NCBI RefSeq assembly: GCF_000293885.2
Contig: NZ_CP010945.1
Location: 2,562,001 to 2,626,000, forward strand
Origin: Pseudomonas fluorescens NCIMB 11764
GTDB lineage: Bacteria > Pseudomonadota > Gammaproteobacteria > Pseudomonadales > Pseudomonadaceae
DNA length: 64,000 nucleotides
Reading direction: 5' to 3'
The position numbers and the translations under genes are program-made. The notes beneath the pieces were generated by a model. It was not told the origin of the DNA. It saw nothing but the letters and a program-made list of their open reading frames with translations, and searched no databases. Below are positions 14,190 through 46,814 of the stretch, piece after piece. The first letter of the stretch is position 1. Each line of letters begins with the position of its first letter.

Positions 14190-14394
14190 GCTGCCACATT
14201 CGTTTCCAAGCGAATGGGTGGCAGCTGTACGCAGGTTGGAAAACCGGGAACCAAGGAACCGGCACGCCCGAGGGCGTCCCACGCACAGCCGCCATTACTC
14301 TAGATTGCAGCCATAAAATCGGTTGCATTCATGCAGGGGGCTCTAGCGCTTTGATTCGACGGGTTTCCAAGCCCGATCGCTGAATGGTCAGCGA
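14190..14394 (-). promoter_or_regulatory. Hairpin-rich leader upstream of DUF3077-like gene; candidate RNA element
   Basis: Plus-strand coordinates of perfect dyads: GCTGCCAC (14190-14197) with GTGGCAGC (14218-14225), enclosing ATTCG-TTTCCAAG-CGAAT (14198-14215); CGCCC-GA-GGGCG near 14265; CGGG-TTTCCAAG-CCCG (14360-14375); TCGCTGA-ATGG-TCAGCGA (14377-14394). The first and third hairpins share the same 8-nt loop, which on the transcribed minus strand reads CUUGGAAA and exposes GGA, the core of RsmA/CsrA sites. The first hairpin ends 24 nt before the start codon. Whether this is one RNA element is inference; folding and conservation were not computed. Confidence 0.5.
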
Positions 14395-14575
14395 CGTCCG
14401 GAGACTATCCCGTCAAAGAAAAGCGCAACAAGGCATCAAAGTGCCCACAAAACACGATTCGGAGTTTGCCTACAAGGTCTGCGGGCGTCATCTGATATTG
14501 CGTCACCTTAAGTAAACAAAACTAAACGCGAAGCGCGATTTCACACGCCGCTGGAGAAGACGGTGGAGATCCAAT

Positions 14576-18953: not shown

Positions 18954-19030
<77 letters not shown>

Positions 19031-19236: not shown

Positions 19237-19313
<77 letters not shown>

Positions 19314-44481: not shown

Positions 44482-44979
44482 TTACCACCAATATTTCCCG
44501 AAGTTTTCCGGATTGGCCCAGAACCGTGAGTTGAGCCAGTCGGGCACTTGTTTGTAGTCAAGCAGATCGTAGGTGAACAGGGTCAGCACCTGATCGTCGC
44601 GCTGGAAACGTTCACTGGCTTGCAGGGCCAGGGAGAAAAAGTCCGTCTCCTGCCAGCCGCTGGCCGGCAAGTCCGCCAGCACCGCAATGCGACTGGCATT
44701 GAGGTTGCGGATTCCGCCGAGCAAATTCAGACCCTCGCGTTTGGGCAAGTGTTCGAGGCAGTCGACCACCAGCGCCAGATCGAAGCGGCGCGCCGCCAGC
44801 TCGACCGGCAACGGCCCGGGCGCGGCATGGGCGACGCAGGTGTCCGGGTGCGCGAGCTTGAACGCTTCAAGCGCGGGAAACTCACTGGCGCCGATCAGCA
44901 ACAGGCGCGGCGGGGCGTAGCGATCGAGCAAAGCGGCCAGCGCCTGCTGCGGCGTGCGCGAAGAAATACCTGAAATCAT
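44482..44979 (-). CDS. DUF6231-type, degenerate methyltransferase-like protein
   Basis: 165 aa from ATG 44979, with GAGGAT 6 nt upstream. Fold pattern resembles a Rossmann methyltransferase ([16 protein letters not shown], then [25 protein letters not shown]) with DCLEHL in place of the usual motif IV, but no clear SAM-binding glycine loop. The name is from recall of pseudomonad annotation. Forms an operon with the YchJ gene. Confidence 0.7.
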
Positions 44980-45115
44980 CAAAGATCCTCAATCAGAGCG
45001 CCAAGACTAGCCTGCCCAAACGCCCAGATATAGAGCGGCTTAGCGCCAAAAGTGCCGATCACCCGTGAACACGGGACAAAACAGGCATGGCCTATTGCTG
45101 GCGGAGATTAAAACT

Positions 45116-45160
45116 CGGGTCTTTACTCCCTGAATCGGTTCTAAGCCGATCCCTCAGGAG
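45116..45160 (+). promoter_or_regulatory. SD-sequestering hairpin before the first OmpA-type lipoprotein gene
   Basis: CGGGTCTTTA, then CTCC(C)TGA and ATCGG (45126-45138), loop TTCTAAG, CCGAT and, after CCC, TCAGGAG (45146-45160). The last arm is the Shine-Dalgarno, 8 nt before ATG 45169, and it pairs with the first arm with one bulged C. The same CGGGTCTTTACTCC start and layout recur before the next gene at 45901 with a different stem sequence. Confidence 0.6.
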
Positions 45161-45168
45161 AAAACTAG

Positions 45169-45864
45169 ATGAGCATAGTTCGGACAGCATTACCCTTGGT
45201 TCTGCTAACCAGTGTGTTGACTGGTTGCGCAGGTTTGCAGAAAACCGACTGGCCGACCTGTGCGGCAGTCGGCGGTGTAGTCGGTGCAGGTCTCGGCGCG
45301 ACCGAGAGTTCGGCATGGGCGGGGTATGGCGCGCTGGCAATCGGCGGTATGGCCGCAGCCTATTGCTGGGTTCACGGTGATGGCGACGAAGACGGCGACG
45401 GCGTGCCGGACAGCCGCGACAAGTGTCCGGGTACGCCTAAAGGCGTGCAGGTCGATGCCGATGGCTGCCCACCACCAGTCCCTGCGCCAGTGGTTGAAGA
45501 GGTGGTTGTGGTCAAGGAAGAAACCATCGTCATCCGCGATGTTCACTTCCAGTTCGACAAAGCCACACTCACTCCTTCCGACAAGCTGGTACTCGACAAA
45601 GTCGCCACTCGCCTGAAACAGGAATCTACCACCGCACGCCTGACCGTCACTGGCCATACCGACAGCGTGGGCAGCGATGCCTACAACCAGAAACTGTCTG
45701 ATCGTCGCGCGCACTCGGTGGTTGATTACCTCGTCAAGGATGGCGTGCCGCGCAGTAGCTTCGTGTCTGTGACCGGTGCCGGTGAAAGCCAGCCTGTTGC
45801 CGATAACAAAACCGCTGACGGCCGTGCGTTGAACCGTCGTACCGAAATCAAGATCGAGCGTTGA
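45169..45864 (+). CDS. OmpA-family lipoprotein with TSP3-like calcium repeat (first of tandem pair)
   Basis: 231 aa. Lipobox LTGC with Cys20; glycine-rich hydrophobic segment (AAVGGVVGAGLGATESS, about 32-48) that may insert in the membrane; a thrombospondin type 3-like Ca-binding stretch (GDEDGDGVPDSRDKCPGTPKG, about residues 72-92, in pieces) and a C-terminal OmpA peptidoglycan-binding domain (about 121-231, with LTVTGHTDSVGSDAYN and NRRTEIKI). Likely an outer-membrane lipoprotein anchored to peptidoglycan. Next gene is a paralogue. Confidence 0.92.
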   Translation: MSIVRTALPLVLLTSVLTGCAGLQKTDWPTCAAVGGVVGAGLGATESSAWAGYGALAIGGMAAAYCWVHGDGDEDGDGVPDSRDKCPGTPKGVQVDADGCPPPVPAPVVEEVVVVKEETIVIRDVHFQFDKATLTPSDKLVLDKVATRLKQESTTARLTVTGHTDSVGSDAYNQKLSDRRAHSVVDYLVKDGVPRSSFVSVTGAGESQPVADNKTADGRALNRRTEIKIER

Positions 45865-45900
45865 GTCCCTTCCGCTCCGCGGCTTGTGCAGTCGCGGATG

Positions 45901-45946
45901 CGGGTCTTTACTCCTGTGTGACCGGCATCTGCCGGTAACACAGGAG
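45901..45946 (+). promoter_or_regulatory. SD-sequestering hairpin before the second OmpA-type lipoprotein gene
   Basis: CGGGTCTTTA, then CTCCTGTGT (45911-45919), G, ACCGGC, loop ATCT, GCCGGT, A, ACACAGGAG (45938-45946). The stem is 9 + 6 bp with one G/A mismatch, and its 3' arm is the Shine-Dalgarno, 9 nt before ATG 45956. There is no T run after it, so it is not a standard terminator of the gene upstream. Same architecture as 45116-45160 but different paired bases. Confidence 0.65.
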
Positions 45947-45955
45947 CTTTCAACC

Positions 45956-46666
45956 ATGAGCCTTCTCCCCAGAACCCTCTTGCCGGTGCTGCTGCTTGGC
46001 GGCGTATTGACCGGTTGCGCGACTCACAGCGATGGCACTGCCCCCCTCAATCAACGTACCTGGCCTGTCTGCAGCGTTATCGGCGGTCTGGTCGGTGGAG
46101 GCCTGGGCGCTCTGGAGAGTAGCGGCTGGGCGGCGGGCGGAGCGGCACTGGGGATCTTGACCGGGGGCTTGATCTGTTATGCCCAGGACGGCGATGAAGA
46201 CGACGATGGTGTATTCGATCGACGCGATCGCTGCCCTGATACCCCGGCCAATACCCCGGTTGAACATCATGGTTGTCCGTTGCCGCAATACCCGGCCAGC
46301 GTGAAACCTGTGCAAACCGAAGTCATCACTCTGAGCGATGCGGGCGACGTGCTGTTTGCCTTCAATAATTCCGACCTGACGCCCTCGATGCAAAGTCAGC
46401 TGGACGCGCTGATGCCCACACTGCAAAGCGCCGATGTGGTGAGCATTAAAGTGATCGGCCATACCGACAGCGTAGGTTCGGACACTTATAACCAGGCGCT
46501 TTCAGAACGACGCGCCAGCAGCGTGGCGGCTTACTTGTTGGGCATGGGCCTGGCGCCGAACAAACTCACCAGCGAAGGCCGGGGCGAAAGTCAGCCCGTG
46601 GCTGATAACGAAACAGACGAAGGCCGCGCGAAAAACCGTCGCGTGGAATTGCACATCAATCGCTGA
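45956..46666 (+). CDS. OmpA-family lipoprotein (second of tandem pair)
   Basis: 236 aa from ATG 45956 (MSLLPRTLLPVLLLGGVLTGC, lipobox Cys21). Same plan as its neighbour: glycine-rich segment (VIGGLVGGGLGALESSG), a DGDEDDDGVFDRRDRCPDTPAN calcium-type repeat (in pieces) and OmpA domain (IKVIGHTDSVGSDTYN to KNRRVELHINR). Starts of both OmpA domains and their order argue for a tandem duplication followed by divergence. Confidence 0.92.
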   Translation: MSLLPRTLLPVLLLGGVLTGCATHSDGTAPLNQRTWPVCSVIGGLVGGGLGALESSGWAAGGAALGILTGGLICYAQDGDEDDDGVFDRRDRCPDTPANTPVEHHGCPLPQYPASVKPVQTEVITLSDAGDVLFAFNNSDLTPSMQSQLDALMPTLQSADVVSIKVIGHTDSVGSDTYNQALSERRASSVAAYLLGMGLAPNKLTSEGRGESQPVADNETDEGRAKNRRVELHINR

Positions 46667-46814
46667 GCCACGTGATAGAGCCGTCGGACAGCCATTTCGG
46701 TTGTTCCGATGGCCATTCGGCGGCCTTCATGAAGAATTTTCCGTTGCCCTCTGGCTTATCCCGCGTGGAAGCCGTTACTGTGCGCGCAAAGAATAATTCT
46801 CAACGGGGGCGCGT

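What the first reader, a model, noticed from the sequence alone, without database searches (positions are those of the whole stretch)
45116..45955. Two tandem OmpA-type lipoprotein genes each preceded by a hairpin that hides its Shine-Dalgarno
Both leaders start with CGGGTCTTTACTCC and then fold so that the SD (AGGAG) pairs with the CTCC just downstream of that start. The middle stem is different in sequence: ATCGG/CCGAT in the first, ACCGGC/GCCGGT in the second, and the lower stem is CTCC(C)TGA/TCAGGAG versus CTCCTGTGT/ACACAGGAG. Same architecture with different paired bases is what covariation looks like and argues for selection on RNA structure. SD to ATG spacing is 8 and 9 nt. A translational switch (RNA thermometer, or release by a protein or small RNA) is the simplest reading. 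The same dyads could instead be DNA operators.
Basis: partly seen in the sequence, partly recalled or inferred. Interest (0 to 1): 0.75.

Follow-up and report, generated by a model that had tools for sequence, protein, structure and literature searches.

The report
Twin lipoprotein promoters with start-site hairpins
Two neighbouring Pseudomonas outer-membrane lipoprotein genes each carry a highly conserved promoter-like element and a short RNA hairpin next to the ribosome-binding site; this looks like a conserved promoter plus start-of-message hairpin rather than a temperature switch.

Summary
The hairpins are real, but the reading changes. CGGGTCTTTACTCC is probably not leader RNA. GTCTTTACT, with TGGC (gene 1) or CTTG (gene 2) at a fixed distance upstream, behaves like a promoter -10/-35 pair: in 61 gene-1 leaders anchored on GTCTTTACT, TGGC is invariant and conservation ends about 32 nt upstream. 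TGGC-N16-GTCTTTACT occurs in 115 of 149 Pseudomonas genomes and, in six, before an unrelated DUF1508-type gene. Transcription would then start inside the lower stem, leaving a hairpin at the message's 5' end, followed by the Shine-Dalgarno (SD). CTCC able to pair with GGAG is kept in 91 of 92 gene-2 but 100 of 129 gene-1 leaders. Gene 1's SD occlusion is ordinary (21 of 65 background starts as low or lower). Covariation is negligible in gene 1 and modest in gene 2 (6 of 15 pairs). The leader as drawn does not open on warming. Best reading: separate promoters plus 5'-terminal stem-loops; gene 2's whole stem would exist only in read-through RNA and mask the SD there. No start site was available to prove this. 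Modest interest.

The parts
45099..45102 (+). gene 1 -35-like block TGGC, 16 nt before GTCTTTACT
   Evidence: each base 131-132 of 134 unique gene-1 leaders; 2.0 bits at fixed spacing in 61 representatives chosen to contain GTCTTTACT
45119..45127 (+). gene 1 -10-like block GTCTTTACT
   Evidence: 161 of 166 gene-1 loci
45131..45134 (+). gene 1 inferred transcription start (range for ECF-like or sigma70-like spacing)
   Evidence: inference from the promoter assignment; not measured
45134..45150 (+). gene 1 core hairpin ATCGG/CCGAT
   Evidence: core found in 123 of 134 unique leaders, 3-9 nt between TCGG and CCGA
45156..45160 (+). gene 1 Shine-Dalgarno AGGAG
   Evidence: G, G, A, G each 133-134 of 134
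45169..45864 (+). gene 1: OmpA-family lipoprotein, 231 aa
   Evidence: PF00691 E 2.1e-24; relatives named OmpA family protein
45876..45898 (+). intergenic hairpin TCCGCGGCT/AGTCGCGGA whose arms change among relatives while the gene 2 -35-like block in and at its loop stays
   Evidence: stem of 7 bp or more (G-T allowed) in 71 of 92 gene-2 leaders, 33 distinct stems; z <= -2 in 26 of 35 against 2 of 35 upstream of gene 1
45883..45886 (+). gene 2 -35-like block CTTG, same spacing as gene 1
   Evidence: 109-111 of 112 per base
45904..45912 (+). gene 2 -10-like block GTCTTTACT
   Evidence: 103 of 124 gene-2 loci
45916..45919 (+). gene 2 inferred transcription start
   Evidence: inference; not measured
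45911..45946 (+). gene 2 long hairpin CTCCTGTGT-g-ACCGGC/GCCGGT-a-ACACAGGAG
   Evidence: z -5.4; 6 of 15 pairs with double changes
45942..45946 (+). gene 2 Shine-Dalgarno AGGAG
45956..46666 (+). gene 2: OmpA-family lipoprotein, 236 aa
   Evidence: PF00691 E 5.9e-24

Best explanation
Each gene has its own promoter of one unusual type (TGGC or CTTG, about 16 nt, GTCTTTACT). Transcription starts 10-13 nt after the C of GTC (inferred), so the mRNA opens with a short stem-loop and the SD follows directly. The stem-loop most likely works as a 5'-terminal structure that protects the message and keeps the start region compact, not as a temperature switch. In gene 2 the full 9+6 bp stem that buries the SD would form only in RNA reading through from gene 1, keeping such RNA from being translated at gene 2. 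Shown: conserved two-block element, hairpin, weaker upkeep of the CTCC partner in gene 1, modest covariation in gene 2. Inferred: start sites, protection, masking of read-through RNA.
For: TGGC or CTTG at a fixed distance from GTCTTTACT, with weaker conservation between and none beyond about -32 in gene 1. TGGC-N16-GTCTTTACT is in 115 of 149 genomes; the reversed pattern gives 16 matches in the same 149 (my count of the table). At 6 of 9 second sites fetched it precedes a DUF1508-type gene (Pfam run on 3 of the 6 and on the window genome's copy). In gene 1 the hairpin's distance to the -10 block (7-10 nt) and the length between TCGG and CCGA vary, as in RNA. Gene 2 stem: double changes in 6 of 15 pairs. 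A CTCC-like strand able to pair with GGAG is kept in 91 of 92 gene-2 but 100 of 129 gene-1 leaders; the nearest upstream gene that Pfam recognises runs away from gene 1 (DUF6231). In 92 unique gene-2 leaders with an intact -10 block the median P(SD open) of the whole leader is 0.00; in the 12 folded of 20 without it, 0.39.
Against: No start site was measured or found here. The -10 block lacks the A at position 2 that the sigma70 scan asks for, and the scan finds no promoter. Double changes at gene 2 columns 12/41 and 14/39 lie at or upstream of the inferred start, which own-promoter RNA alone would not explain. Gene 1's core stem is nearly invariant in sequence, more than a purely structural hairpin needs, and only 33 of 129 gene-1 leaders fold at z <= -2. 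In gene 2 the hairpin spacing is nearly fixed (9 nt in 88 of 93). With RNA starting at the inferred sites the SD of gene 2 still folds with early codons (P(open) 0.02-0.16). Slid controls give 2-5 pairs with double changes, and one slide has more changed cells (13) than the structure (10). Loss of -10 block and CTCC together may be common decay. Apart from the six DUF1508 sites, not every match was checked for the gene behind it.
Confidence: 0.5

Rival explanations
1. Translational switch as first proposed: the whole leader from CGGGTC on is in the mRNA and the stem hides the SD until heat, a protein or a small RNA opens it.
For: Gene 2 SD is buried (P(open) below 0.01) and the stem covaries down to column 12/41. 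CTCC can still pair with GGAG in 100 of 129 gene-1 leaders.
Against: Two-block promoter signature; no rise of SD opening with temperature for the drawn leader at 10-50 C; gene 1 occlusion ordinary.
Confidence: 0.15
2. DNA operator: the CGG...CCG dyad just downstream of the promoter is bound by a repressor that blocks initiation.
For: Core arms nearly invariant in both genes, CGG/CCG common to both; position suits an operator; in gene 2 spacing is nearly fixed (6 nt between the arms in 82 of 93).
Against: In gene 1 the half-site spacing varies (6 nt in 23, 7 in 96, others in 4 of 123); the lower stem of gene 2 covaries.
Confidence: 0.2
3. No function of its own for the hairpin: conserved promoter, SD and spacing produce it by descent from one duplicated leader.
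For: Gene 1 shows no double changes above shuffles and weak folding z.
Against: Core arms are found in 123 of 134 unique gene-1 leaders and gene 2 covaries.
Confidence: 0.15

Closest known systems
E. coli ompA 5'-terminal stem-loop mRNA stabiliser (Emory et al. 1992, seen only as cited in PMC7509114)
   Same: stem-loop at or near the 5' end of an mRNA, close to the SD
   Different: here the 5' end is inferred, half-life unknown, no sequence relation tested
Yersinia ompA RNA thermometer (PMC8245352, search listing and start of abstract only)
   Same: structured 5' UTR of an OmpA gene
   Different: the leader as drawn shows no predicted opening with temperature
Pba/PA1041 of P. aeruginosa, OmpA-family peptidoglycan-binding anchor (PMC7947798, abstract and passages)
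   Same: OmpA-domain lipoprotein, 210 aa, near in length to the 209-aa gene-1 relatives in L072/L073
   Different: orthology with gene 1 not tested by sequence; leader not described in the passages read
AlgU-type promoters (GAACTT-N16/17-TCTNN, quoted in PMC7641640, passages)
   Same: TCT in the -10 block, similar spacing
   Different: -35 is TGGC or CTTG, not GAACTT

Membership tests
RNA thermometer | SD paired in the leader | tested here: met
   predicted; gene 2 strongly, gene 1 weakly
RNA thermometer | SD opens on warming through the growth range | tested here: not met
   predicted only, leader as drawn, 10-50 C; from the inferred starts a gradual rise is predicted (gene 1 0.52 to 0.78, gene 2 0.004 to 0.11)
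RNA thermometer | match to a described Rfam family | tested here: not met
   none in the region at gathering scores; two matches far below gathering scores (45076-45152 minus, 45216-45274 plus), neither a thermometer
5'-terminal stem-loop stabiliser (ompA type) | stem within a few nt of the 5' end | tested here: inconclusive
   holds if the promoter assignment is right; no 5' end measured
5'-terminal stem-loop stabiliser (ompA type) | longer mRNA half-life because of the stem | not testable with these tools
   needs experiment
Bacterial promoter | two conserved blocks at fixed spacing with less conserved DNA around | tested here: met
   (one search is anchored on the second block, so only the first is a free result there)
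sigma70 promoter | TTGACA/TATAAT-like hexamers | tested here: not met
   one search finds none on either strand of 44950-46800
AlgU promoter | GAACTT -35 | tested here: not met
   TGGC or CTTG instead
SigX promoter | SigX consensus | not testable with these tools
   PMC7641640 states the consensus is not precisely defined

The most novel reading that the evidence does not exclude
Start-site-dependent SD masking: the strand that hides gene 2's SD overlaps the end of gene 2's own promoter, so mRNA from that promoter lacks it while read-through mRNA from gene 1 carries it and cannot be translated at gene 2. One DNA stretch would thus act as promoter and as translational insulator.
Probability: 0.15. 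Interest if true: 0.6.

Novelty: new member of a known kind. Interest (0 to 1): 0.35.

Why it matters
It gives a promoter-like element widespread in Pseudomonas, shared by two OmpA-family lipoprotein genes and, in some species, a DUF1508 gene, with a sigma factor still to be named. If gene 1 corresponds to PA1041 (not tested), it bears on a gene listed second among the most often differentially expressed in 73 P. aeruginosa studies (PMC8547006, table passage). If gene 2's stem masks read-through RNA, it would be a compact way to insulate tandem duplicates.

Tried and rejected
Thermometer: rejected on predicted folds at six temperatures for the leader as drawn. Rfam family: none fitting. Intergenic hairpin as an intrinsic terminator: the scan lists none at 45876-45912, so only hairpin conservation is claimed. 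A regulon from GTCTTTACT alone: 16 copies in the genome against 36 of the reversed word, so the word is not over-represented; of the 14 other sites read one precedes DUF1508 (L215), and there TGGC is not at the fixed position. A looser pattern, CTKGYG-N14..16-GTCTTTA, gave four sites, two of them these genes; L114 and L117 were not followed further. A common hairpin in DUF1508 leaders: rejected, z from -1.9 to 1.1 in 7 leaders. The oprF upstream region as a SigX yardstick: no evident match by eye, not pursued. Start-site data: searches for PA0833, PA1041, PP1121/PP1122 and SigX motifs and the passages read gave no start site for these genes; supplements were not open. The motif string in print: 101 papers, 20 listed, none of those 20 titles names Pseudomonas. 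Structure prediction was not run.

The background is small: 65 starts from 464 kb by a simple ORF rule that demands GGAG.

Rows dropped: one search used 60 of 66 representative gene-1 leaders and one search used 48 of 55 gene-2 leaders, leaving out poor or decayed ones; repeat the counts with all 66 and 55. L066, L071 and L169 (gene 1) were skipped in choosing representatives; L174 gave no gene-2 start. Of 62 stretches listed, 60 were fetched. Searches use only leaders that contain GTCTTTACT.

Full report
Observation. Both genes encode OmpA-domain lipoprotein-like proteins. Folding gives a very stable hairpin for gene 2 (z -5.4, 0 of 200 shuffles) and a marginal one for gene 1 (z -2.0, 8 of 200; z 0.13 on a longer stretch). 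Against 65 GGAG starts from 464 kb of the same genome, gene 1's SD occlusion is ordinary (21 as low or lower); for gene 2, 6 are as low and its hairpin is the most stable (1 as low, possibly itself).

Relatives. I collected 79 loci of named records, 30 loci from a search of 298 genomes and 60 stretches from further genomes of that search. This gave 166 gene-1 and 124 gene-2 leaders, 134 and 112 unique over 92 nt. The two sources may overlap in species.

Promoter. GTCTTTACT is present in 161 of 166 gene-1 and 103 of 124 gene-2 loci. Among leaders that contain it, anchored on it without gaps, 61 gene-1 leaders show 2.0 bits at TGGC, 20 to 17 nt upstream, 0.3-1.7 bits from about -31 to -21, 0.2-1.3 bits between the blocks, and 0.0-0.5 bits further upstream. 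Gene 2 has CTTG at the same place (35 leaders; 109-111 of 112 per base). TGGC-N16-GTCTTTACT occurs in 115 of 149 genomes, once in 103 and twice in 12 by my count of the table; the reversed pattern has 16 matches in the same genomes. I fetched one extra site in nine of the twelve; six precede a gene of one family with its ATG 61-67 nt downstream of TGGC, and Pfam calls DUF1508 in the three of them tested. The same family sits behind a GTCTTTACT in the window's genome, though without TGGC at the fixed position. The other three extra sites had no such gene. An element in front of unrelated genes at promoter distance is best read as a promoter. The sigma factor is unknown: the sigma70 scan finds nothing and AlgU's GAACTT is missing.

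Hairpin. In gene 1 the core ATCGG/CCGAT is nearly fixed in sequence; between TCGG and CCGA lie 7 nt in 96 and 6 nt in 23 of 123 scored leaders, and the distance to the -10 block runs from 7 to 10. The closing pair is U-G, C-G or U-A in 116 of 123. No double change occurs in 60 leaders and 2 pairs in 66, like shuffles, though the covariation score exceeds most shuffles (8 of 500 as high). Folding z of gene-1 leaders is <= -2 in 33 of 129 (median -1.1), of gene-2 leaders in 89 of 92 (median -4.9). In gene 2, 55 leaders give 6 of 15 pairs with double changes against 2.4 +/- 1.1 in shuffles; slid controls give 2 to 5, and one has more changed cells (13 against 10). Restricting to 48 better-kept leaders gives 5 against 1.6. 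So RNA pairing is supported for gene 2 and neither firmly supported nor refuted for gene 1.

SD hiding. The tetramer facing the SD can pair with GGAG in 100 of 129 gene-1 and 91 of 92 gene-2 leaders that have GTCTTTACT; on 66 gene-1 representatives the four pairs are kept in 91% of cells. P(SD open) for the leader as drawn is 0.15 for gene 1 and 0.003 for gene 2 at 37 C; between 10 and 50 C it stays below 0.01 for gene 2 and goes from 0.27 to 0.15 for gene 1. If RNA starts 12 nt after the G of GTC, gene 1's SD opens to 0.46-0.67 depending on the length folded, but gene 2's stays at 0.04-0.10 because it pairs with early codons; these shorter RNAs do open gradually on warming (gene 1 0.52 to 0.78, gene 2 0.004 to 0.11). 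Across relatives the medians go from 0.08 to 0.41 (gene 1, 129) and from 0.00 to 0.11 (gene 2, 92).

Between the genes. A second hairpin, with changing arms (33 distinct stems of 7 bp or more in 92 leaders), encloses gene 2's -35-like block; upstream of gene 1 such stems are rare (3 of 128). It may mark the 3' end of gene 1's mRNA; no intrinsic terminator is scored there.

Decayed cases. In a group of relatives gene 2 has lost GTCTTTACT (e.g. L142, L149, L153) and the CTCCTGTG strand, yet ACACAGGAG stays. The median P(SD open) is 0.39 in the 12 folded of 20 unique leaders without GTCTTTACT, against 0.00 in 92 with it. This fits read-through masking being dropped when gene 2 relies on read-through, but also simple decay of overlapping sequence. 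Some without GTCTTTACT (L098, L123, L169) keep the stem.

Literature. I saw search listings, abstracts and passages, no whole paper. PA0833 (PMC5974059) and PA1041/Pba (PMC7947798) are the named P. aeruginosa OmpA-family proteins considered; the solved PA0833 domain matches gene 1 at 70 bits, less than OprF's domain at 95. In both papers a term search of the text for 'promoter' gave no occurrence. I found no paper describing these leaders in the searches made.

Noticed in passing
window 45876-45898: Hairpin between the two genes with changing arms around a constant CTTG; gene 2's promoter block lies in and at its loop.
   Followed up: partly
L199-L204, L215: DUF1508-type genes with the same GTCTTTACT element, six with TGGC at the fixed distance.
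   Followed up: partly
window 45088-45102: TGGC occurs twice upstream of gene 1, 11 nt apart (45088 and 45099), a possible activator site.
   Followed up: no
window 14214-14408, minus strand: Rfam C4 antisense RNA and its a1/b1 target region; from general knowledge a phage immunity element, so perhaps a prophage.
   Followed up: no
window 18957-19030 and 19240-19313, minus strand: Two tRNA genes with equal Rfam scores close together.
   Followed up: no
window 44482-44988, minus strand: Divergent DUF6231 gene upstream of gene 1.
   Followed up: no
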